Part shown: positions 2,288-42,838 of the stretch, piece by piece | Layout: each line of letters begins with the position of its first letter | Position numbering within the stretch: the first letter of the stretch is position 1 | NCBI RefSeq assembly: GCF_003633755.1 | Contig: NZ_RBIL01000001.1 | Span: 1,473,426-1,537,425, forward strand | Source: Solirubrobacter pauli | GTDB taxonomy: Bacteria > Actinomycetota > Thermoleophilia > Solirubrobacterales > Solirubrobacteraceae | Direction: 5' to 3' | Length of the DNA stretch: 64,000 nt | Notes under the pieces: generated by a model | Seen by the model: only the letters and a program-made list of their open reading frames with translations | The model's database searches: none | What the model was told of the DNA's origin: nothing | Translations under genes and position numbers: made by a program

Positions 2288-4075
2288 TCAGCGCCGGAGG
2301 GTGATCGTCTTCGTCGTCGTGCGCGTGTTGCCGGCCGCGTCGGTCGCGGTCAGGCGCAGCGTGAACTTCGCGCTCTTGGCCTGCTTGAGCGTCTTCTTCG
2401 CCGCCTTCGAGAGCTTGAGCGTGAGCGCCTTGCTCGCCGTCGTGAGCCTGACCGTGCGCTTGCCGACCTCCTTGCTCTTGAGCCGGAGCGAGGCCTTGAT
2501 CGTGCACGCCTCGTCACACGTGGCGGTGACCTTCAGGCCGCGGCTGAGCACGGTCTTGAGCTTCTGCTTGCGCACCGTCGCGGTGGCCTTCGGCTTCGTC
2601 TTGTCGGCGACGCCCGTGCCGAACAGCGGCGTCCGCGAGAGGCCGGGCAGCGTGACGCTGCCGGACGCCGCGCCCGCGGCCGTGGGCCTGAAGACGACGG
2701 TGAGCTGGCAGTGGGCGGTGAGCGCGAGCGTCTGCCCGGAGCAGGTGTCGGCGGTGATCGCGAACGGCCCGTCGACGACCGGCTTCGGCATCGCCAGCGG
2801 ACGCAGCCCGTAGTTCGGGTACCCGAGCTCACGCGACTCGCTGGTGGCGCCGACGACCGTGCTCTTGAACCCGGTCGGGTTGTCGAAGGTGAGGACGGCG
2901 GGCTCGTTGCGCAGCAGGTAGACCGAGCGCTTGTCGGGTGCGACCGCGAGGATGTCCAGGTCACCGTCGCGGTCGGCGTCCGTGACCCCCACGTCCGACA
3001 GCGGGCCGGACGGGGACTGGTCACCCAGGTCGTACGGGCGCTCGGCGGCGAACCCGCCGGCCCCGTTGCCGAACAGCACGTCGACGGACGGGCCACTCGA
3101 GCCGCCGACGACCACTGCGTCGGTGCGCCCGTCACCGTCGACGTCACCGGCGGTCCCGGTCGCCCAGCCGCCCGGCGGCGGGAACTCGAGGCCGGTCGTG
3201 ATCGCACCGGCGCTGAACGCGCCGCCGTCTCCGGCGAGCAGGCTCTGCGGCGTACGACCGGTGACGACGATCGCGTCGTCGCGGCCCGGCGTGCGCAGCT
3301 GCGCCGTGAGCACGTTCAGGACGGGGCCGCGGCTCGGGCTGGCCGGGCCCGGGGTGAGCGTGCCGTCGCCGTTGCCGGTGAACACCTTCACGCCGTCGGC
3401 GCAGGTCGCGCAGTCCCGGCCACCGACGATCACGTCGGGCGTGCCGTTCGCGTCGACGCGACCCACGGCCAGCGACTGGTACGACGTGCCGCTCAGGCCG
3501 TAGCGCACCAGCGGGTCGAACCCGGTGGGGTTGGCGAGCAGGACGTGCAGGCCGGCGTCGTCGAACGAGGTGATCAGGACGATCAGGTCGTCCCGCCCGT
3601 CGCCGTTGAGGTCGCCGGTGGCGATGCGGCCGGGCGTGGTGTTCGCGGAGGCGCCGCCGGCGACCATCGAGATGGCCCGCGGCGTGTCCACGAACGCACC
3701 GGAGGACGTGCGGGTGAAGACCCAGACGTGGTTGTTGTCGTTGCGGCCGAGGATGACGTCAGGGCGCTTGTCGCCGTCGACGTCGCCGACGGCCAGCCGC
3801 CCGCGCGCGGCGTCCTCGCAGATCCCCGGGTTGCTCAGGCGCTGGAACTCCGAGTAGGTGCCGTCGCCGCCGCCGAGCAGCACGGTGGCACGGCAGACCG
3901 AGCCGACGACGAGGTCGCCGATGCCGTCCTGGTTGACGTCCGCGACGCGCAGCTCGCGCACCGCGTCGCCGAACGAGGCGACCGGCGTGAAGCGCGGCTT
4001 CGCCGCGTGAGCCGCGGACGGCAGTGCGATGACCGCGAGCACGCCCGCGAGGACAATCCGTTGAACCCTGGACAC
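2288..4075 (-). CDS. Secreted FG-GAP/VCBS beta-propeller protein
   Basis: 595 residues. The GTG at 4075 is chosen because AAGGAA lies 8 nt upstream and the stop of the preceding gene is 2 nt away; a TTG two codons earlier is too close to that site. A signal peptide (VSRVQRIVLAGVLAVIALP, cleavage near AHA) is followed by at least six FG-GAP repeats, each with a calcium-loop-like DxNxDG or DxDGD motif (VNQDGIGDL, VDGDKRPD, LNGDGRDD, VDANGTPD, VDGDGRTD, ADRDGDLD), so a seven-bladed propeller is likely. A beta-sandwich of the ASPM/SPD-2/Hydin type follows (VVFRPTAAGAASGSVTL). The last 100 residues are Lys-rich and resemble the surface-associated tails common in this group. It probably acts in adhesion or matrix binding; the ligand is unknown. 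Confidence 0.82.
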   Translation of the reverse strand: MSRVQRIVLAGVLAVIALPSAAHAAKPRFTPVASFGDAVRELRVADVNQDGIGDLVVGSVCRATVLLGGGDGTYSEFQRLSNPGICEDAARGRLAVGDVDGDKRPDVILGRNDNNHVWVFTRTSSGAFVDTPRAISMVAGGASANTTPGRIATGDLNGDGRDDLIVLITSFDDAGLHVLLANPTGFDPLVRYGLSGTSYQSLAVGRVDANGTPDVIVGGRDCATCADGVKVFTGNGDGTLTPGPASPSRGPVLNVLTAQLRTPGRDDAIVVTGRTPQSLLAGDGGAFSAGAITTGLEFPPPGGWATGTAGDVDGDGRTDAVVVGGSSGPSVDVLFGNGAGGFAAERPYDLGDQSPSGPLSDVGVTDADRDGDLDILAVAPDKRSVYLLRNEPAVLTFDNPTGFKSTVVGATSESRELGYPNYGLRPLAMPKPVVDGPFAITADTCSGQTLALTAHCQLTVVFRPTAAGAASGSVTLPGLSRTPLFGTGVADKTKPKATATVRKQKLKTVLSRGLKVTATCDEACTIKASLRLKSKEVGKRTVRLTTASKALTLKLSKAAKKTLKQAKSAKFTLRLTATDAAGNTRTTTKTITLRR

Positions 4076-30930: not shown

Positions 30931-31509
30931 TCACTCGGTCAGCACCACGCACCCGCGGGCCAACAGCTCACCCGGTGGGTCGTAGACCGCGTTCCAGCGC
31001 AGGTCGAGCTTCTCCAGGCGCGGGAGCTCGACGATCCAGTCGGGGACGGACTCCAGGCGGTTGGCGCGCAGGTCCAGCAGGCGCAGCTCGTGCAGGTCGC
31101 GCACCGTCTCGGGCACCGCGGTGAGCGCGTTCGTGCGCAGGTGCAGCTCGCGCAGCTTCGGGAGCCGGAGTGGCGGCACCGACGTCAGGCCCAGGTCCAG
31201 CGCGCGCAGCTCGATCAGGTTCGGCAGGTCGAAGGCGGGCAGCGCGGGGAGCGGGTTCTCGCTCACGTTCAGGTACGTGAGCGAGTCCGGGAGCGCGGGC
31301 ACGGCCTCCAGCGCGTTGTCGTGGATGTAGAGGATCTCGAGCCGGGTCAGCGCGGACAGGTCGGGCAGCGCGCGCAGCGCGTTGTGGCCGAGGTCGAGCG
31401 TGCGCAGGCCGGTCAGGGAGCCGTACCAGTCCGGCACGGCCTCCAGCCCCAGCTCACACGTGTAGAGGCGCTCCAGCTCCGGGTCGGGAGCCGCGAGCAG
31501 CCCTCTCAG
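30931..31509 (-). CDS. Leucine-rich-repeat protein, probable CTG start
   Basis: About 192 residues made of seven LRRs of 22-23 residues (LRTLDLGHNALRALPDL, LEILYIHDNALEAVPAL, LTYLNVSENPLPALPAF, LRELHLRTNALTAVPETV, LRLLDLRANRLESVPDWI, LEKLDLRWNAVYDPP), so a protein-binding solenoid. No ATG, GTG or TTG exists in frame before the first repeat; the first is a GTG at 31437 inside it. A CTG at 31509 overlaps the TGA of the nucleosidase-like gene (CTGA), like the ATGA couplings elsewhere, and is the best start. The alternative is a ribosomal frameshift that fuses the LRRs to the upstream protein. Either way the two are expressed together. Confidence 0.72.
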   Translation of the reverse strand: MRGLLAAPDPELERLYTCELGLEAVPDWYGSLTGLRTLDLGHNALRALPDLSALTRLEILYIHDNALEAVPALPDSLTYLNVSENPLPALPAFDLPNLIELRALDLGLTSVPPLRLPKLRELHLRTNALTAVPETVRDLHELRLLDLRANRLESVPDWIVELPRLEKLDLRWNAVYDPPGELLARGCVVLTE

Positions 31510-33230
31510 GCGTCGTACAGCCCCTCCAGCGACAGGATCCGCCGCATGATGGCCACGCTCGAGGCGTAGGTCGAGTCCAGCCCGTAGTACGAGAGCCCGC
31601 GAGCGCCGAGCGTGCGCGCCTGCGAGTACGGCGTGTCGGAGGCGTAGTGGATGATCCCGAAGTCGATCGGGAGCTTGGAGAAGTTGACCGCCTCCCCGCT
31701 CGGGTAGCGGTCGGCGTCGGCGATCTCGTAGACCGCGTTGCAGAACGGCCCGGCCTCCATCTCGACCACGGTGTACGCCTCGCGGTAGTAGAAGTCGAGG
31801 TAGTTGCGGTTCTGCAGGAACGTCGACTTGACGGTGACCGCGCGCTGGTTGTCGAGGCCGCTGCCGAACACGAGGTAGGGCGCGACGTCGTCGAACGTGA
31901 ACGCGTTGTCGAGCCAGTAGGTCGAGCCGGAGTGCTCGTCGTGGATGACCCCGCTGATCAGGACGTCGCCGACGTCGGCGTTGAGCGTCGCCGCCTTGCC
32001 GAGGACGTAGACGCCGCGCAGCGTGTCGTGCGCGGTCGTGATCTCGCGCAGGATGTTGTAGGCCGCGAGGCCCAGCGGGTACTCGATGTTGACCACGACG
32101 CCGTTGGCCCGCGCGAGCTTGTCCGCGTCGATCGGGCCGAGCCGCGTGTCCAGCCCTTCCGGATCGAGCTTCGCCAGGTCGATCACCTGCGCCGAGACGC
32201 GCAGGCCGGTGCGTGAGGAGATGTGCGTGATGCCGAGCTCGCGCTCGGCCTTGCGGCGGCGGTCCCACGCCTCGCCGTCCTCCGGCTGGCGCTCGTAGAA
32301 CAGCCGCGCGCCGTAGTAGAGGAAGTTCTCCCACGAGCCCTCCGTGCGCCCTTCGCGGAAGTCCCCGAGCTCCTCGACGAGGTAGTCGGGACCCTCGGAC
32401 TCCACGAACGCGACGATCTCGTCCTCGCTGACGCCCGCCTTGGTCGAGACCAGGTTCATCAGCGAGTGCGTGTTGGAGGAGACGAAGTACATCGGCTTGT
32501 CCGACAGCGACTGGTCGGTCAACCGCGCCCGGACCGGCGCCCACCAGCGACGGGTGAGCCGTTGGTAGCCGGCCTGCGAGCCGCCGAGCATCCGGATCCG
32601 CAGGTTGAGCTTGCGGTCACGCACCTCGCTCACGAATGCGGCGAGCCCGTCGGGCCAGGACTCGGCGACGCGTGCCCAGTCGCCCTCCGAGCCCCCGCAC
32701 GCGGCCGCCACGGCGGCCGGGTCCGGGTCATCGGCAACGGCGGCCGCGCGCATCAGCGCGTGCAGCTTGTTCCACTCGAGCTGGTAGGCGACGAGCGACG
32801 GGATCGCGTCGTCGAGGTCCGACGTGGACGCGAGCAGCACGGCGAGCGTGCCCTCGCCGTTGTCGAACCAGCGCCGCCGGCGCGCGGGCGCCTCCATCGG
32901 CGTCCAGTCCTCGATCCGGCCGAAGCCCGCGCGCGCGAACGCCTCGGCCTCCTGGCCCATCACGACGACGTTCGCCCGCCACACCGACTCCGGGAGCCGC
33001 CGCAGCGAGTACAGGAACGCGCCCAGGTCGGGCTGCTCGAGGTCGTACGCGAGCGGGTGCAGGCTCGAGTTCATCGCGGCGTGCGACGGCTCGAGCACCC
33101 GCAGCAGCGTCTCGCCTGAGGACCGCAGCAGCGTCGTGTACGTGCGGTGGTAGAGCTCCACCTCGTCCGACGCCCGGTGGAGGGTCCCACTCGGCTCGGC
33201 GGACGGGACGCGAAGACGAGGGACGGCCAT
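31506..33230 (-). CDS. Large protein with nucleoside phosphorylase-like C-terminal domain
   Basis: 574 residues. The C-terminal 250 residues carry marks of the purine nucleoside phosphorylase/nucleosidase fold: GVYVLGKAATLNADVGDVLI, VVEMEAGPFCNAVYEI (MEA motif near residue 488) and HYASDTPYS (SD near 528). The N-terminal half is helical with no known motif (VELYHRTYTTLLRSSGETLLRVLEPSH). From memory it matches proteins labelled DUF6909. It may cleave or phosphorolyse a nucleoside or a nucleotide derivative. The ATG is 8 nt after TAGCGT. It is followed by the LRR gene with a 4-bp overlap and is divergent from the SWIM locus. Confidence 0.75.
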   Translation of the reverse strand: MAVPRLRVPSAEPSGTLHRASDEVELYHRTYTTLLRSSGETLLRVLEPSHAAMNSSLHPLAYDLEQPDLGAFLYSLRRLPESVWRANVVVMGQEAEAFARAGFGRIEDWTPMEAPARRRRWFDNGEGTLAVLLASTSDLDDAIPSLVAYQLEWNKLHALMRAAAVADDPDPAAVAAACGGSEGDWARVAESWPDGLAAFVSEVRDRKLNLRIRMLGGSQAGYQRLTRRWWAPVRARLTDQSLSDKPMYFVSSNTHSLMNLVSTKAGVSEDEIVAFVESEGPDYLVEELGDFREGRTEGSWENFLYYGARLFYERQPEDGEAWDRRRKAERELGITHISSRTGLRVSAQVIDLAKLDPEGLDTRLGPIDADKLARANGVVVNIEYPLGLAAYNILREITTAHDTLRGVYVLGKAATLNADVGDVLISGVIHDEHSGSTYWLDNAFTFDDVAPYLVFGSGLDNQRAVTVKSTFLQNRNYLDFYYREAYTVVEMEAGPFCNAVYEIADADRYPSGEAVNFSKLPIDFGIIHYASDTPYSQARTLGARGLSYYGLDSTYASSVAIMRRILSLEGLYDA

Positions 33231-33238
33231 GCGCCATG

Positions 33239-33244
33239 ACGCTA
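33239..33244 (-). promoter_or_regulatory. -10 box TAGCGT of the nucleosidase-like gene
   Basis: TAGCGT lies 8 nt before the ATG at 33230, with no ribosome-binding site. The divergent plus-strand gene starts about 50 bp away. Confidence 0.5.
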
Positions 33245-33295
33245 CCGCACCCTCGGCTGCGACCCGCCACCCGCTCGGTGTGGAACGCTTCCCCG

Positions 33296-35794
33296 GTGCT
33301 GGGTGGGATCATCGAGCGCGATCCACGGCGGGTCGCGCGGGAGCTGCATGGCCTCACCGAGGCCGAGCGGCGCGCGCTCGCGCCCGAGCTGCTGCGGTAC
33401 GCGCGCAGCCGGCCCGGCATGGAGAACGAGCCCACGGTCCACGTCGGGCTCGTCGGCACCGCGACCTTGAAGGAGATCCGCCGCTTCGGCGGCTGGTCCG
33501 CGTCGATGATCGACGCGGAGCACGGCCTCGCGGTGCTGCTGGACCGGCGGCCGAGCTGGCTGCAGGCGTACGCGGAGTGGCGGCTGACGGCCGAGTCGTT
33601 CGAGTCGCCGTGGTCGCTGGTGCGCGGCCTCGTGCGCGCGGGCGCGATCGAGCGGCCGGGCGCGCCGTACCTCAGCGCGCTGGTCCGCGAAGGGCGCAAG
33701 GCGTACTCGGAGGACCGCGGGGCGGCGGAGCTCGTCGCCGACGACCCGGAGCTGCTCGAGCGCGAGGTCTGGGACCTGCTCACGTCCGACACGGGCGACG
33801 AGTCACTGCGCGCCGCCGATGTCCACAACGAGTGGGCGCCCGGTGCGGGCTGGGGCGACCTGATGCGGGAGCGGCTCCCGCGCGAGCGCCTGCTCGACGC
33901 GATCCTCGACGGGCTCGCGAACGACATGGTCGCGTACCGGGCGACCTGGCACACGAAGCTGTGGAAGGACCTCGCGCCCACCGTGGAGGAGCGGGCACAG
34001 CGCGCCGACCGGCTGCGCGCGCTGCTCGGCGCGGCGGCAGAGCCGGTCGTGGCGTTCGCGGTCGCGGAGCTCGGGCGCGCGAAGGTGCGGGTGCCTGCGG
34101 AGGCGCTCAGCCCCGCCCTGGCCGCGTCCTCGAAGGCCACCGTGCGCGGTGCGCTCAAGCTGCTCGACCACGATCCCGGCGCGGCCACCATCGCCCTCGG
34201 CCACCCCGACGCGGCGCTGCAGGGCCACGTGCTCGACCGGCTCGAGCGCTGGGGGCTCGACGCCGCCGCCCGCGACGGGCTCCTGCGCCACTTGGACCTG
34301 CTCGCGGCGACGGTGCGCCCGCGGGCGGAGGCGCTGCTCGGCGTCGCGCTGCCGGCGGCCGAGGAGGTCGTCGCGGTCGACGTGTCAGGCATCCCCGAGG
34401 CGATCCGGGTGGCGCTGAACTTCGGCGGCCCGCTGCCGCCGGCGCCGATCCCCGGGGAGCCCCTGCTCGGCGAGCCGGTCGCGCCGATCGCGACCCTCGA
34501 GGAGCTGGCGGCGTCGCTGGAGGAGCGGCACGTGTACGGCCCGCCGTTCCCGGAGGCGGAGCGCCAGCTGGACGCGATCCTGCGCCACTGCGGCACGCGG
34601 GAGCCGTTCGACGGTCCGCTGGCGCCGCTCGTCGAGCCGTTGCGGGAGCTCGTGGCGGACGGCTGGCTGGTATGGCCCCGCGGCGTCGCGGCGTCGTGGC
34701 TGACCGGCACGGAGCCCCGCCTGCGGGAGGAGACGAAGGCGGTCAGCTACCTCCGCGTCGCCGTGGTCGGCACGCGTGCGGCTCGGGGCGAAGCCGGCCC
34801 GCTGCTCGCGCTGCCCACGCACGCGGGCGCCTGGATCGACCCGCGCGTCCTCGTCGAGCGCGTCGCCGCCGCGGGCACGCGCGTGGACGAGATCGAGCTG
34901 GCGCAGGCGTTCCTGCGGCTCGCTCCGGATCACCGCGCGGACGCGCTCGCCGCCGCGGCGGACCTGCCCGGCGCCGCCGGTGCGGCGGTGCGCTGCGCGC
35001 TCGGCGGCGAGCCCGTGGACGGCGGCGGGTGGGCCGCGGACGCCGCGCGCGCCGTCGCCGGGATCACGCCGATCGAGGTCCACGTCGAGCGTCACTCGAC
35101 GCAGTGGGGCGAGCGGTTCCGCGCGCGCGTCACCGGCCCGGGCGGAGATGGCCCGCTCGGCGAGGCGCTCGGCGACGTGGCCGGCGACCGGTTCTGCGAC
35201 AGTCACGACTTCCCGGCGCGCAGCGACCTCGCCGCGGCGGCCGCCATCGGGAGGATCAGCCAGTACCTCGACGGCACCGAGGCGGTCGCGACGGCGGGCG
35301 AGCTGCTGCCGCGCCTGCTGCCGGCGCGGGAGCCGATCGCGCCGCTGACGTTGCGCTTCCTCGTGCTCGCGCTGGGCTCCGGCGCGCCGGTCGAGCACCT
35401 GCTCGCCGTCGACGTCTTGATCGCCGCGATCGAGGACGGCCGCGTCGACGCGCTCCCGCCGGAGGACGTCGACATGCTCAAGCCGAACCGGCTCGCCGCG
35501 CGGTTGACCACGATCGCCGAAGCCGGTCCGCTGCACCGCGCGGTCGTGCGGGAGCTGCTGGACGCCTCCATCCACCTCGTTCCCGCCCGGTCCGGCCCGC
35601 TGCTCGTGCTCTTCGACGAGCTGTGCGCGCAGACGGGCGTCGGCCCCACGCACGCCCGCGCGCACCTGGGCACGCTCAAACACAAGGCGGCGAAGGCGCT
35701 GCTCAGGCGCGAGGGCACGCCACCGCCGCAGGAAGCCCAGCTCGCGCTCGCCGCGCGCGTGCGCCGGGCACGACGCTGGATGGAGCGCACATGA
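33296..35794 (+). CDS. Large helical-repeat protein, paralog A (DUF6493-like)
   Basis: 832 residues, cytoplasmic, rich in Ala/Leu/Arg helices like HEAT repeats. Start GTG at 33296 is chosen because the paralog at 36992 begins at the same point (VLGGIIERDPRRVARELHGL against VLEAVVAGDATRVAAQLHGL); an ATG at 33236 is possible. Shared islands with paralog B include DVSGIPEAIRVALNFGGPLP and LPTHAGAWIDPRVLVERV. From memory this resembles the actinobacterial family DUF6493, found beside SWIM zinc-finger genes. No catalytic motif is seen. The stop overlaps the SWIM gene start (ATGA), so they are translated together. Confidence 0.75.
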   Translation: MLGGIIERDPRRVARELHGLTEAERRALAPELLRYARSRPGMENEPTVHVGLVGTATLKEIRRFGGWSASMIDAEHGLAVLLDRRPSWLQAYAEWRLTAESFESPWSLVRGLVRAGAIERPGAPYLSALVREGRKAYSEDRGAAELVADDPELLEREVWDLLTSDTGDESLRAADVHNEWAPGAGWGDLMRERLPRERLLDAILDGLANDMVAYRATWHTKLWKDLAPTVEERAQRADRLRALLGAAAEPVVAFAVAELGRAKVRVPAEALSPALAASSKATVRGALKLLDHDPGAATIALGHPDAALQGHVLDRLERWGLDAAARDGLLRHLDLLAATVRPRAEALLGVALPAAEEVVAVDVSGIPEAIRVALNFGGPLPPAPIPGEPLLGEPVAPIATLEELAASLEERHVYGPPFPEAERQLDAILRHCGTREPFDGPLAPLVEPLRELVADGWLVWPRGVAASWLTGTEPRLREETKAVSYLRVAVVGTRAARGEAGPLLALPTHAGAWIDPRVLVERVAAAGTRVDEIELAQAFLRLAPDHRADALAAAADLPGAAGAAVRCALGGEPVDGGGWAADAARAVAGITPIEVHVERHSTQWGERFRARVTGPGGDGPLGEALGDVAGDRFCDSHDFPARSDLAAAAAIGRISQYLDGTEAVATAGELLPRLLPAREPIAPLTLRFLVLALGSGAPVEHLLAVDVLIAAIEDGRVDALPPEDVDMLKPNRLAARLTTIAEAGPLHRAVVRELLDASIHLVPARSGPLLVLFDELCAQTGVGPTHARAHLGTLKHKAAKALLRREGTPPPQEAQLALAARVRRARRWMERT

Positions 35795-36999
35795 TCGAGC
35801 ACGCCTACCTCTACCCCGCGCCGTCGACCGCGACGGCCGACGCGCTCAACCTCGCCACGAGCGGCGGCGTCGCCACGCACCCGCACCTCTTCCGCGGCGA
35901 GCTGAACGACCCCGCGATCCACGCGAGCGCGATCCTCGCCGTGGCGCGCACGGCTCGCGCCCGGTTCTTCGAGCACGGCAAGGTGATCACCGACCCGGTC
36001 GTGACCTGCCACGCGGACCGGATCCGCTTCGAGGCGCTCAGCTCGTGCGCGGGCGTGTACGCCCGCCACGACGCGATGCTGAGCGGCGCCGACGGCGAGG
36101 TGCTGCGGGTCGGGGTGACCAACGTGGACGTCAACGAGGCCACGCGCGGCGTGCTCGCCCGCGTCGGCGGCGGCGGTTGGCTGCACCTGGCGGTCGGCGA
36201 GGACGAGGTCCAGGTCGCCGGCCCGGGCGGCGTGGCGGTGGAGCGCAAGGTCGCGCTGCCGACGCGCTGGGTGAAGGGCTTCGGCGAGGTCGGCGTGGCC
36301 GCGCGGGCGCTGCAGCCGGGGTTCGAGCTGCCCGGCGTCGTCGCCCAGCGCTTCCTGCGGGCGGCGTTCCCGCGCACGCGTGAGGTCTCCCTGATGCCGG
36401 GTGGGCGGTGGTCGGTCGCGGGCGGCGCCGGCGCGGTGGCCGTGCGCGACCCCGAGCGGTTGAAGCTGCTGGAGCCGCTCGCACGCTTCGGCACGGGGCT
36501 GCGCGTGTGGGGCGGGCCGACCGGCGTGAGCGCGTTCACGCTGCAGCTGGGCGCCGCCGGCGCGTTCACCCTGGTGCTCAGCCCGGCCAAGTCGCGCGGG
36601 TTCAGCGGCGAGGGCGGCACGCTCGCGCCGCTCGCGGCCGAGGCGTTGCAGCCCGCCGCCGACGACGCCGAGCTCGACCTCGCCTGGCAGCCGCGCCTGG
36701 CCGGCGCGCCGGAGGTGCTCGATGTGCTCGCCGCGCGCGGGCGCGCGGGCTTCGACCTCGACGCCGGCGCCTACTTCCACCGCGATCTCCCGTACGACCT
36801 CACACAGGTCGAAGCGCTGCACCCACGGCTGCAGGCGGCGCGCAAGCTCGTGCCCGAGGTGCGCTGGGAGGGCGACCACGCGTGGGTCGGCTCCTACCGC
36901 GTGGTGCCGCCGGCCTGCACGTGCGAGTGGTGGGCGCGCCATCGCGGTGAGCGCGGCCCGTGCAAGCACGTGCTGGCGGCCGAGCTGGCGCGTGCTTGA
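35791..36999 (+). CDS. SWIM zinc-finger protein
   Basis: 402 residues. The C-terminus carries a SWIM finger CxCx12CxH (C376, C378, C391, H393 in CTCEWWARHRGERGPCKH), a fold that binds DNA or protein. The rest is a beta-rich domain (GVATHPHLFRGELNDP, RWVKGFGEVGVAARALQPGF) without known motif. ATG at 35791 overlaps the stop of paralog A by 4 bp; its own stop overlaps the start of paralog B by 8 bp. The order paralog A - SWIM - paralog B in one tight operon suggests the three form a complex. SWIM proteins of this kind often neighbour MoxR-type ATPases, but none is in this window. Confidence 0.85.
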   Translation: MIEHAYLYPAPSTATADALNLATSGGVATHPHLFRGELNDPAIHASAILAVARTARARFFEHGKVITDPVVTCHADRIRFEALSSCAGVYARHDAMLSGADGEVLRVGVTNVDVNEATRGVLARVGGGGWLHLAVGEDEVQVAGPGGVAVERKVALPTRWVKGFGEVGVAARALQPGFELPGVVAQRFLRAAFPRTREVSLMPGGRWSVAGGAGAVAVRDPERLKLLEPLARFGTGLRVWGGPTGVSAFTLQLGAAGAFTLVLSPAKSRGFSGEGGTLAPLAAEALQPAADDAELDLAWQPRLAGAPEVLDVLAARGRAGFDLDAGAYFHRDLPYDLTQVEALHPRLQAARKLVPEVRWEGDHAWVGSYRVVPPACTCEWWARHRGERGPCKHVLAAELARA

Positions 37000-39415
37000 G
37001 GCGGTCGTCGCGGGCGACGCGACGCGCGTTGCCGCCCAGCTGCACGGCTTGTCGGAGTCGGAACGGCGAGCGGTCGTGCCGGAGCTGCTCGGCCTGTTGA
37101 AGGCATTGCGCAAGCCCAGCCACTACACGTCGGTCCTGGACGCGTCGGGGCAGCCGCAGGAGGTGGAGTGGGCCGACCACCGCGGCTGGGAAACGCACAT
37201 GGATCAGGAGCGGGCGGTGCATACCGGGCTGCTGGCGAGCGCGACGTTGAGCGAGTTGCGGCGCGCGCGGATCACGTTCGTCGCCCACGACGACGCGCTG
37301 GCGATCCTGCTCGATCGCCGACCTCCCTGGATGCAGGAGTGGGTCGAGCTCTACGACGGCTGGGCACTGGGCCACGAGTTGGTCACCCGCAGCCTCATCG
37401 AGCGCCCGACCGGCTACTACGCGGGCCTACTCCGCCAGTCCGCGAGCTGGGCGTTGGCGACGTACCCTGAGCTGCTCGAGCACGACGTCTGGGCGCTGCT
37501 CAACTACGTCGGCGAGGACAGCCTGCGTGCCGCCGACGACAACGGCGGCAGTGGCTGGGCGGACGCGCTGCTGGCGTGCGCCGCCGATGGCCGGCTCCCA
37601 CGTGCCCGGCTGCTCGACGCGACCCTCGACGCCCTCGCCGGCGACATCGACGCTTACCGCGCTGTCTGGTTCACGCGGTTCTGGCGCGCGCTCGCGCCCA
37701 CGCGCGAGGAGCGGCGGGAACGGGCGGAGCGACTCGCGGCGGTGCTCGCCGCGCCCGCCGCGTCGGCGGTCTCCTTCGCGGTCACCGAGCTCCTGCGCGA
37801 CGACGCCGCGGTGCCCACACGCGAGCTGGCCCCGGCGCTCGCCGCCGGCCCGAAGGGCACGGCGCTCAAAGCGCTCCGGTTGCTCGACCGCGCACCCGAT
37901 GCCGAAGCCGCGGTCGTCGCGCTCGCCCACGTGGCGCCAGAGGTGCAGGCGGCGGCGCTGGACCGGCTGGAGCGCTGGGGCGTGGAGCCGGCGGCGCTGG
38001 AGCCGTACTTCGACGGCCTCGCGGCCACCCAGCGCCCGCGGGCCCTCGCCCTGCTCGACGGAACGCCGGCGCCGGCCGTGCAGGACGAGGCCGTCGACGT
38101 GTCGGGCATCCCCGAGGCGATCCGTCTCGCGCTCAACTTCGGCGGGCCGGTGCCCGAGGCACCGGTGGCGGGCGAGCCGGTCCTCGGCGCCCCGATGGCG
38201 CCGATCTCGCTCGCGGAGGCGGCTCACCGCGTCGGGACGGCGCTCGTCGACCACGAGGCACCCGAGCACGAGGACGAGTGGCTGCTGGACGCGCTCCTGC
38301 GGTGCTGCGACGAGCCGACCGCGTGGGACGGACCGCTGCGCCCGTTCGCCACGCGGCTCGACGATCGCTGGTCAGAGACCGTGCTGGCCGTCGCGGCGGC
38401 GTGGCGCAGCGGCCAGGCGCGCGCACGCTTCTACGAGCCCGGCCTGTGGGAACGACGCCTCCTCGCCGCCGAACGCCGCGCCGCGGCGGGCCAGTCCGCG
38501 CCCCTGCTCGCGCTGCCCACGCACGCGGGCGGCTGGATCGAGCCCGTTGCGCTCGTCGAACGCCTCCGCACCGTCGGCGACACCGCCGACGAGGACGAGC
38601 TCGCCCAAGCCATCCTGCGCCTCGCCCCGGAGGGTCGTGCCACCGCACTCGCGGCGGCGTCCGACCTCCCGGGCCGAGCGGGCGCGGCCCTCCGCTGCGC
38701 GCTCGGGGGAGCGCGCGTCGACGGCGACCGCGCGGACGAGCTCGTCGCCCGCCACGTGCGCGTCCCCGCGCTCGAGCCGCGACTCGGCGTCGAGGTGCGC
38801 GTCTGGGACATCCCGGACTACGAGTACGACCATCGCGACTGGATCGTGACGGCAAGCCCGGTCGACGAGCGCGAGCCGCTCAGCCAGCTCGGGGCGCGCG
38901 CGGCCGGCCACGACTTCCGGACGACGCCGCTCGACTGGCCGGCGCGGCGCGACCTGGCGTGCGCGGAGCCGTTCGGCCGCTACGGGCAGTGCGCGCCGCT
39001 GCTGCTGACGCTCCTGCCCTCCAGCGAGCCGCTGCCGCCGCTCGCACTGCGGCTCGCGCTCGTGTCGCTCGCTCACCAGGATGAGGTGGTGCGGCTCGCG
39101 GCGACCGATCTGCTGATCGCCGCGATCGACGACGGCCGGGCCGACGCGCCCGCGCTCATCCCACACCTGCGCGAGGATCTGCCGCTCCTCCTGACGAACC
39201 GGCTCACGCCGCGCTTCACCGACATCGCGGCCACGGGCGTGCTGCACGCGGTCGTCGTGCGCGACGCGCTTGCCGCCACGATCGACGTGGTGACCAAGCG
39301 GCCTGGCCCGCTGCGTCGGTTGCTCGGGGAGCTCGAGGCCCAGACCGAGGGCGTCGATCCGGCACCGTTGCTGCTCGCCGCGCAGGTGCGTCGCGCTCAG
39401 CGCTGGATCGGGTAG
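36992..39415 (+). CDS. Large helical-repeat protein, paralog B (DUF6493-like)
   Basis: 807 residues, homologous to paralog A over nearly full length: DVSGIPEAIRLALNFGGPVP, LPTHAGGWIEPVALVERL, DELAQAILRLAPEG. It lacks a short segment near the C-terminus that paralog A has (HLGTLKHKAAKALLRREG). The GTG at 36992 overlaps the SWIM stop by 8 bp. Both proteins begin with a conserved helix about rejecting or handling RV-A-ELHGL and end with a basic (V)RRAxRW helix, which may be a contact site. Function unknown. Its last 19 bp overlap the convergent metallo-beta-lactamase gene. Confidence 0.75.
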   Translation: MLEAVVAGDATRVAAQLHGLSESERRAVVPELLGLLKALRKPSHYTSVLDASGQPQEVEWADHRGWETHMDQERAVHTGLLASATLSELRRARITFVAHDDALAILLDRRPPWMQEWVELYDGWALGHELVTRSLIERPTGYYAGLLRQSASWALATYPELLEHDVWALLNYVGEDSLRAADDNGGSGWADALLACAADGRLPRARLLDATLDALAGDIDAYRAVWFTRFWRALAPTREERRERAERLAAVLAAPAASAVSFAVTELLRDDAAVPTRELAPALAAGPKGTALKALRLLDRAPDAEAAVVALAHVAPEVQAAALDRLERWGVEPAALEPYFDGLAATQRPRALALLDGTPAPAVQDEAVDVSGIPEAIRLALNFGGPVPEAPVAGEPVLGAPMAPISLAEAAHRVGTALVDHEAPEHEDEWLLDALLRCCDEPTAWDGPLRPFATRLDDRWSETVLAVAAAWRSGQARARFYEPGLWERRLLAAERRAAAGQSAPLLALPTHAGGWIEPVALVERLRTVGDTADEDELAQAILRLAPEGRATALAAASDLPGRAGAALRCALGGARVDGDRADELVARHVRVPALEPRLGVEVRVWDIPDYEYDHRDWIVTASPVDEREPLSQLGARAAGHDFRTTPLDWPARRDLACAEPFGRYGQCAPLLLTLLPSSEPLPPLALRLALVSLAHQDEVVRLAATDLLIAAIDDGRADAPALIPHLREDLPLLLTNRLTPRFTDIAATGVLHAVVVRDALAATIDVVTKRPGPLRRLLGELEAQTEGVDPAPLLLAAQVRRAQRWIG

Positions 39416-40822: not shown

Positions 40823-42838
<2,016 letters not shown>

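What the first reader, a model, noticed from the sequence alone, without database searches (positions are those of the whole stretch)
30931..39415. Little-known locus: LRR + nucleosidase-like protein divergent from a paralog-SWIM-paralog operon
Two large homologous helical proteins flank a SWIM zinc-finger protein in an operon with 4- and 8-bp overlaps, which suggests a fixed-ratio complex. Back to back with it are a protein with phosphorylase/nucleosidase motifs (MEAG, ASDTP) and a leucine-rich-repeat protein. A repeat-type sensor, a nucleotide-directed enzyme and a nucleic-acid-binding finger next to two scaffold-like proteins is the kind of mix seen in conflict or stress systems. The function of each family is, to my knowledge, unassigned.
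Basis: partly seen in the sequence, partly recalled or inferred. Interest (0 to 1): 0.8.

Follow-up and report, generated by a model that had tools for sequence, protein, structure and literature searches.

The report
Nucleoside enzyme beside retron-like zinc-finger cassette
Two separate gene sets sit back to back: a protein with the nucleoside-phosphorylase fold, unrecognised by sequence, whose relatives often sit among nucleoside-uptake genes, and a removable cassette pairing a zinc-finger protein related to one from retron immune systems with unusually fast-changing partner proteins.

Summary
The genes are real and as described, but they look like two independent units, not one system. (1) The "nucleosidase-like" protein is Pfam DUF6909. 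A confident model (pLDDT 88.8, pTM 0.88) puts residues 227-570 in the NP-I nucleoside phosphorylase/nucleosidase fold (Z 20.2), with EME and SD residues invariant in 75 of 75 aligned rows. Sequence searches miss this. In 10 of 80 relatives it directly follows an ABC permease gene of BMP/PnrA type, and some lie near deoB, deoC, upp or add: nucleoside catabolism. (2) DUF6493-SWIM-DUF6493 is a 6.1-kb accessory cassette, found in 3 of 7 genus genomes, with an empty site in relatives. Its SWIM protein is homologous to the SWIM component of type XIII retrons, but no reverse transcriptase, WGR or HEAT-ARM partner was found. SWIM is 89-92% identical among the three carriers, while DUF6493 proteins are 44-77% identical between them and number 2, 3 or 4. 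The halves were found together only in three Solirubrobacter genomes; 9 of 9 outside genomes with a SWIM_XIII match lack DUF6909. A defence role for the cassette is plausible, not shown. The LRR gene is a genus-level neighbour without a conventional start codon.

The parts
30931..31500 (-). LRR protein (about 189 aa); start codon uncertain: frame conserved back to about 31500 (CTG), first GTG at 31437
   Evidence: Pfam LRR_4/LRR_8; -1 frame abutting the DUF6909 stop, LRR gene in 6 of 7 genus genomes
31506..33230 (-). DUF6909 protein, NP-I nucleoside phosphorylase/nucleosidase fold in residues 227-570
   Evidence: PF21850 706 bits; AlphaFold2 pLDDT 88.8, pTM 0.88; VIA Z 20.2, rmsd 2.6, 213 aligned to 1odi; Foldseek best 5.2e-8
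33258..39391 (.). accessory cassette (about 6.1 kb), absent from L021 (S. deserti), where 38 bp lie in its place
   Evidence: blastn of the empty site against the window
33296..35794 (+). DUF6493 + DUF7824 paralog 1
   Evidence: PF20103 32.7 bits, PF25148 37.4 bits; start
35791..36999 (+). SWIM zinc-finger protein, homologue of the SWIM component of type XIII retrons
   Evidence: PF04434; PADLOC SWIM_XIII 96.5 bits, E 3.4e-28; profile A4 against the M. bullatum SWIM 120 bits, hhalign probability 99.57
36992..39415 (+). DUF6493 + DUF7824 paralog 2; its 3' end overlaps the convergent rhodanese gene by 19 bp
   Evidence: PF20103 50.5 bits, PF25148 34.6 bits
39397..40752 (-). MBL-fold/rhodanese protein; right-hand neighbour of the cassette and direct neighbour of DUF6909 at the empty sites L021, L022 and L024 (not part of the cassette)
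   Evidence: Rhodanese 93.7 bits, Lactamase_B 39.1 bits; synteny

Best explanation
Two independent units meet here. (A) DUF6909 is a nucleosidase or nucleoside phosphorylase of the NP-I superfamily that works in (deoxy)nucleoside uptake and breakdown. Shown: predicted fold, invariant EME and SD residues, gene neighbourhood in part of the family. Inferred: Glu490/Met491/Glu492 hold the ribose and Asp532 protonates the leaving base, as in DeoD and MTAN (residue roles recalled). Substrate, and whether water or phosphate is the nucleophile, are unknown. (B) The DUF6493-SWIM-DUF6493 operon is an accessory cassette built on the same SWIM protein family as type XIII retrons but without a reverse transcriptase. 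Shown: homology, presence/absence, varying paralog number, fast change of DUF6493 against conserved SWIM. Inferred: the SWIM protein is the constant nucleic-acid-binding core, the DUF6493 proteins (probably helical repeats) are interchangeable recognition or effector subunits docked on it, and the whole acts in defence against invaders.
For: A: model pLDDT 88.8, pTM 0.88; NP-I enzymes fill the 50 rows shown, Z 18.8-20.2; 598 Foldseek matches at E<=1e-3, best MTAN; E490 M491 E492 S531 D532 invariant in 75 of 75. Neighbours among 80 loci, by blast clusters named from one representative each: permease 3-51 nt before the aligned start, same strand, in 10; phosphopentomutase 22-52 nt after the aligned end, same strand, in 4; within 9 kb DeoC in 6, Upp in 8, adenosine deaminase in 3; divergent PfkB kinase at 71-314 nt in 16. 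B: SWIM_XIII match; positive control, a WGR-SWIM-RT type XIII locus in M. bullatum; SWIM homology over 328 columns; empty site; 2/3/4 paralogs in one clade 100/100; dN/dS paralog 1 0.37 [0.30-0.46] against SWIM 0.19 [0.11-0.28], second pair 0.62 [0.52-0.72] against 0.22 [0.14-0.32]; same contrast in four g77 genomes, SWIM 75-86%, DUF6493-type partner 47-64%, two flanking genes 74-88%; SWIM patchy, 59 of 150 g77 genomes, 4 of these only fragments; plasmid copies in Diaphorobacter (beside an integrase), Asticcacaulis and Streptomyces.
Against: A: Pfam PNP_UDP_1 does not match and sequence-profile comparison finds no NP-I homology. Canonical PNP_UDP_1 proteins are present in 61 of 61 relatives, so DUF6909 fills no gap. 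70 of the 80 loci show no permease directly before DUF6909 (some contigs are short), and in the window no nucleoside gene adjoins. B: no dN/dS above 1, so relaxed constraint is possible; dS of the second DUF6493 pair is also raised, 0.56 against 0.25-0.46 for SWIM and flanks. SWIM not found in phage records or confirmed in IMG/VR. Only 7 of 72,556 plasmid records match, 6 of them predicted non-mobilizable. In four g77 genomes the pair has the same flanking genes, so it behaves like a resident locus. Of ten flanking window proteins, only the ClpB-like AAA protein and an ArsR-type HTH protein matched PADLOC models, through generic domains. No phage phenotype was tested.
Confidence: 0.6

Rival explanations
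1. One reading: all five genes form one conflict or stress system, with LRR as sensor, DUF6909 as nucleotide-directed effector or second-messenger maker, and SWIM/DUF6493 as a scaffolded nucleic-acid module.
For: Adjacency in 3 Solirubrobacter genomes, one of which lacks the LRR. PNP-superfamily domains are proposed second-messenger enzymes in conflict systems (PMC7159879, passages seen).
Against: DUF6909 in 7 of 7 genus genomes but the cassette in 3 of 7; clean empty site; 78 of 80 DUF6909 loci without SWIM/DUF6493; 9 of 9 outside genomes with a SWIM_XIII match without DUF6909; nucleoside-catabolic neighbours elsewhere.
Confidence: 0.06
2. The SWIM-DUF6493 module is not defence but a cellular stress or regulatory complex, and DUF6493 simply tolerates change (relaxed constraint on helical repeats).
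For: dN/dS below 1; same flanking genes in four g77 genomes; no match in phages, none confirmed in viral contigs; of the module's proteins only SWIM matches a defence model well (one DUF6493 gives a weak GajB match, 13.3 bits).
Against: Patchy distribution with remnants, plasmid copies, presence/absence with empty site, copy-number change 2/3/4, homology to a retron component.
Confidence: 0.35
3. DUF6909 is a specialised NP-I nucleosidase acting on a nucleotide or modified nucleoside (AMP-nucleosidase-like) rather than a general salvage enzyme.
For: Two-part layout (about 220 aa plus NP-I domain) as in AMP nucleosidase, which is among the matches; PNP_UDP_1 proteins already present in 61 of 61 relatives; by eye, no Arg aligns with the phosphate-site Arg of DeoD in the GKAATL segment (inference).
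Against: Direct linkage to a BMP-type transporter and phosphopentomutase suits a phosphorylase making ribose-1-phosphate.
Confidence: 0.3

Closest known systems
Type XIII retron (PADLOC models RT_XIII, SWIM_XIII, WGR_XIII, HEAT-ARM_XIII)
   Same: SWIM homology over most of the protein; SWIM encoded next to a large partner protein
   Different: RVT_1 search of 10 genomes with a SWIM match: none near the SWIM gene, 5 with no RVT_1 match at all; partner is DUF6493, which matches neither WGR_XIII nor HEAT-ARM_XIII
SWIM-DUF6493 gene pairs of actinobacteria and proteobacterial plasmids (annotated, function unassigned)
   Same: Same two families, adjacent, often overlapping
   Different: One or two DUF6493-type genes there; two to four in Solirubrobacter; Solirubrobacter SWIM has a 13-aa gap in the region of a weak winged-helix match
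NP-I enzymes: DeoD purine nucleoside phosphorylase, MTA/SAH nucleosidase, AMP nucleosidase
   Same: Fold, EME and SD motifs; deo-type gene context in part of the family
   Different: No detectable sequence similarity beyond the EME word; extra N-terminal region of about 220 aa; not matched by PF01048
E. coli yehLMPQ (MoxR, YehM, VWA, SWIM)
   Same: Contains a SWIM protein (YehQ)
   Different: No similarity of the SWIM profile to YehQ beyond a chance-level finger match, nor of the DUF6493 profile to YehI or YehM; no MoxR or VWA gene in the cassette

Membership tests
Type XIII retron | SWIM component | tested here: met
   SWIM_XIII 96.5 bits, E 3.4e-28; control M. bullatum 706 bits
Type XIII retron | Adjacent reverse transcriptase | tested here: not met
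   RVT_1 in own genome: two matches, one 1.1 Mb away, one on another contig; in 9 other genomes with a SWIM match none near the SWIM gene; none named in the tables of 5 plasmid records (these tables are incomplete)
Type XIII retron | WGR or HEAT-ARM partner | tested here: not met
   Window DUF6493 proteins match no PADLOC model at E<=1, nor do relatives match a type XIII model; the control WGR protein does, 836 bits
Type XIII retron | msr/msd non-coding RNA | tested here: inconclusive
   No Rfam match in the window; whether Rfam holds a type XIII family was not checked
NP-I nucleoside phosphorylase/nucleosidase superfamily | NP-I fold | tested here: met
   Predicted model: Z 20.2, rmsd 2.6, 213 residues; Foldseek 5.2e-8
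NP-I nucleoside phosphorylase/nucleosidase superfamily | Ribose-site Glu/Met/Glu and catalytic Ser-Asp | tested here: met
   E490 M491 E492 S531 D532 invariant in 75 of 75 rows; correspondence by motif, roles recalled
NP-I nucleoside phosphorylase/nucleosidase superfamily | Match to Pfam PNP_UDP_1 (PF01048) | tested here: not met
   Not among matches at E<=1
NP-I nucleoside phosphorylase/nucleosidase superfamily | Phosphate-binding arginines (phosphorylase rather than hydrolase) | tested here: inconclusive
   No residue-level superposition available; profile alignment failed
NP-I nucleoside phosphorylase/nucleosidase superfamily | Catalytic activity | not testable with these tools
   Needs enzyme assay
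vWA-MoxR ternary conflict systems / yehLMPQ | MoxR ATPase and VWA genes in the operon | tested here: not met
   The cassette's three proteins match neither; the neighbouring AAA protein is ClpB-like and matches bpMoxR only below cut-off, 23.2 against 27

The most novel reading that the evidence does not exclude
SWIM-DUF6493 is a stand-alone immune system that shares its SWIM core with type XIII retrons but needs no reverse transcriptase. An array of two to four fast-diverging DUF6493 receptors is combined with one conserved SWIM protein, so that recognition is diversified by duplication and turnover of the partner rather than of the core.
Probability: 0.3. Interest if true: 0.75.

Novelty: new variant of a known kind. 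Interest (0 to 1): 0.55.

Why it matters
It turns two unknown-function families into testable ones. DUF6909, not recognisable as an enzyme by sequence search, becomes a candidate nucleosidase with a defined active site and an assay. SWIM-DUF6493 pairs become candidate reverse-transcriptase-free relatives of type XIII retrons; the SWIM gene alone is found in 59 of 150 genomes of one actinobacterial genus. One can then ask whether retrons borrowed a ready-made SWIM module or whether this module lost its reverse transcriptase. The contrast of a conserved SWIM with rapidly changing partners suggests where recognition may lie.

Tried and rejected
Rejected: one five-gene system. Rejected: DUF6909 as a replacement for a missing PNP, since PF01048 is in 61 of 61 relatives. 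deoB is in all 12 DUF6909 genomes and in 31 of 61 overall, but the 12 all belong to one family, so this says little. Led nowhere: DUF6909 against solved structures by sequence (only a weak folliculin match, E 0.034); profile alignment with DeoD, Udp, Mtn and Amn; DUF6493 (nothing) and SWIM (one weak match to a transcriptional regulator, E 0.44) against solved structures; SWIM in phages (no match) and in viral contigs (17 pattern matches, none confirmed); DUF6493 paralog 2 in plasmids by tblastn (no match); Rfam on the window (no match). Paper searches: 'DUF6909' and 'DUF6493' gave 0 papers each; SWIM with MoxR/defence, SWIM domain with MoxR, VWA and conflict (27 papers, 20 listed), retron with SWIM, WHSWIM or type XIII and SWIM/WGR/HEAT showed no title or start of abstract that describes the type XIII SWIM protein. 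'Retron type XIII' is named in PMC11953036 (passages seen); PMC12548924 gave only a gene-abbreviation legend (passage seen); PMC7159879 has no 'SWIM' in its main text. The composition of type XIII retrons therefore rests on PADLOC model names and the M. bullatum control. A DUF6493 structure was not predicted because both jobs went to DUF6909; its helical-repeat nature rests on HEAT matches below cut-off in one relative. Neighbour families were named from one representative per blast cluster, and most other flanking genes were judged only by their first residues. Rows dropped: of 80 DUF6909 loci, L085 and L086 were skipped as too short or bearing X, and L041 fell out as identical (77 kept); I left out L057, L066 and L083 before alignment A3 (window plus 74 loci). 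Search one search scored at most 11 candidates per genome, so its counts are lower bounds, as is the pattern-based scan (107 relatives, best 80 kept; the window's own or very near records may be left out).
Full report
What is there. The five genes exist as described. On the minus strand lie an LRR gene and DUF6909 (PF21850, 706 bits). On the plus strand lie DUF6493+DUF7824 paralog 1, a SWIM protein and DUF6493+DUF7824 paralog 2, overlapping by 4 and 8 bp. The window belongs to a 7.1-Mb genome. Among the named loci fetched, the nearest at DUF6909 is Solirubrobacter phytolaccae at 94% (which may leave out the window's own record).

The cassette is separate from DUF6909. In seven genus genomes DUF6909 occurs in 7 and the SWIM gene in 3 (one carrier has a second, weak 20.7-bit match). 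In S. deserti (L021, and L024, the same strain) and Ca. S. pratensis (L022) DUF6909 lies directly beside the MBL-rhodanese gene; in S. soli (L023) no such gene was called. Blastn of the L021 junction matches the window up to about 33257 and again from about 39392, with 38 bp in place of 6.1 kb. SWIM dS between carriers (0.32-0.41) is like that of the flanking genes (0.18-0.46), so the cassette seems to have been inherited with the chromosome since the carriers split; whether others lost it or never had it is not resolved. Profiles of SWIM and DUF6493 find only L036 and L038, both Solirubrobacter, among 80 DUF6909 loci; some of those loci are short contigs. DUF6909 is absent from 9 of 9 genomes with a SWIM_XIII match outside the genus. 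Six of these hold the intact pair; the others are weak cases. In a sample of 246 genomes of the phylum DUF6909 was found only in the own genome.

DUF6909 has an NP-I fold. With 75 aligned sequences the model has mean pLDDT 88.8 and pTM 0.88. Residues 227-570 align with Thermus purine nucleoside phosphorylase 1odi at Z 20.2, rmsd 2.6, 213 residues, 8% identity; the 50 rows shown are PNP, uridine or MTA phosphorylases, MTA/SAH nucleosidases and futalosine hydrolase. Foldseek gives 598 matches at E<=1e-3, the best an MTA/SAH nucleosidase. Sequence methods do not see this: no PF01048 match, no solved relative, no profile alignment beyond the EME word. The first 226 residues were barely tested by the fold search.

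Part of its family sits in nucleoside catabolism. A genome scan found 107 relatives, 80 kept, titled mostly Solirubrobacterales, Dormibacterota, 'Chloroflexi' or unplaced. Families are named from one representative per blast cluster. In 10 of 80 loci a BPD_transp_2 permease gene ends 3-51 nt before the aligned start, on the same strand; a second permease precedes it in 7 and a BMP/PnrA-like protein in 4. Phosphopentomutase follows at 22-52 nt in 4 loci, and within 9 kb lie DeoC (6), Upp (8), adenosine deaminase (3) and aldehyde dehydrogenases. In 16 other loci a PfkB-family kinase is divergent at 71-314 nt; the best NCBIfam models of its representative, nucleoside kinase and ribose-1-phosphate kinase, are below cut-off. 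This resembles E. coli deoC-deoA-deoB-deoD, with DUF6909 in the place of a nucleoside phosphorylase. Against a simple replacement, PNP_UDP_1 proteins occur in 61 of 61 relatives. Many loci, the window included, show none of these neighbours.

The SWIM protein and retrons. The window SWIM matches PADLOC SWIM_XIII (96.5 bits, E 3.4e-28). A Methylobacterium bullatum record gives a positive control: three consecutive genes matching WGR_XIII (836 bits), SWIM_XIII (706) and RT_XIII (584). The profile of the SWIM family here matches the M. bullatum SWIM at 120 bits, and hhalign aligns 328 columns at 30% identity, probability 99.57. So the SWIM proteins are homologous over most of their length. But an RVT_1 search of 10 genomes with a SWIM match found none near the SWIM gene: 5 have no match, and in the others the matches lie on other contigs or more than 1 Mb away. 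The tables of five plasmid records name none, though those tables are incomplete. DUF6493 proteins match no type XIII model. The locus is therefore not a type XIII retron; it shares one component with it. SWIM-DUF6493 pairs occur in other actinobacteria and on plasmids of Diaphorobacter (next to an integrase, with two DUF6493 genes), Asticcacaulis and Streptomyces; in one Streptomyces plasmid the partner is only 'hypothetical protein'. S. cadmiisoli has a SWIM gene without DUF6493 beside it, and in L136 no called gene matches SWIM. In genus g77 (unnamed; probably Streptomyces) SWIM is found in 59 of 150 genomes, 4 of them only as short fragments.

Fast partners, steady core. The three Solirubrobacter cassettes hold 2, 3 and 4 DUF6493 genes, all nine in one clade with 100/100 support that is poorly resolved inside. 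SWIM is 89-92% identical between species. The gene just after SWIM is only 45-49% identical, and the best orthologous pair, window paralog 1 with S. phytolaccae, is 77%. For that pair dN is 0.155 [0.132-0.179] against 0.060 [0.039-0.084] for SWIM and 0.041-0.046 for three flanking genes; dN/dS is 0.37 against 0.19, and for a second orthologous pair 0.62 against 0.22. In four g77 genomes at one syntenic site SWIM is 75-86%, its partner 47-64% and two flanking genes 74-88% identical. No value exceeds 1, and dS of the second pair is raised too, so diversifying selection, relaxed constraint and old allelic divergence are all open. All nine genes are uninterrupted reading frames as called.

Mechanism proposed. 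Unit A: imported nucleosides are cleaved by DUF6909 and the pentose moiety is passed on through phosphopentomutase, DeoC and aldehyde dehydrogenase; fold, motifs and context are shown, chemistry and substrate inferred. Unit B: SWIM binds nucleic acid and DUF6493 proteins, encoded in overlapping frames, dock to it as changeable sensors or effectors; homology, cassette behaviour and rates are shown, binding and defence inferred.

Noticed in passing
window 31437-31509 and L020, L021, L022, L023, L024: The LRR frame is conserved right back to the DUF6909 stop codon, in the -1 frame, yet has no ATG or GTG there (TTG in L020 and L022, CTG or CTC in the others): translation coupled through a weak start, or a programmed frameshift making a DUF6909-LRR fusion.
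   Followed up: partly
L019 (S. phytolaccae) 2802-3197: No LRR gene follows DUF6909; another small predicted gene does, so the LRR is not always kept with DUF6909 or with the cassette.
   Followed up: no
window 35791-36999, alignment A4: The three Solirubrobacter SWIM proteins have a 13-aa gap in the region where a relative weakly matches a winged helix; a DNA-binding helix may be lost.
   Followed up: no
L145 2441-9373 (Methylobacterium bullatum plasmid 1): Complete type XIII retron candidate (WGR, SWIM, RT) in a stretch for which the held gene table lists nothing.
   Followed up: partly
G000:C1:2643884-2644465 and G000:C2:963995-964384: Two reverse-transcriptase domains elsewhere in the window's genome, type not determined.
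   Followed up: no
genus g77 genomes G374, G388, G411, G413, G415, G438, G450, G469: Short or split SWIM-family matches, in some beside a full copy elsewhere, suggest decaying copies of the module.
   Followed up: no
window 40823-42838: ClpB/ClpC-like AAA protein whose N-terminus has two CxxC pairs (CAVC...CETC), a possible zinc-binding element; it lies beside the rhodanese gene also in L019, L020, L021 and L024.
   Followed up: no
G001 (L021) and G006 (L024): Two species-level genomes of the collection carry the same strain name, CPCC 204708, and the same neighbourhood; counts per genome in this genus are inflated by one.
   Followed up: partly
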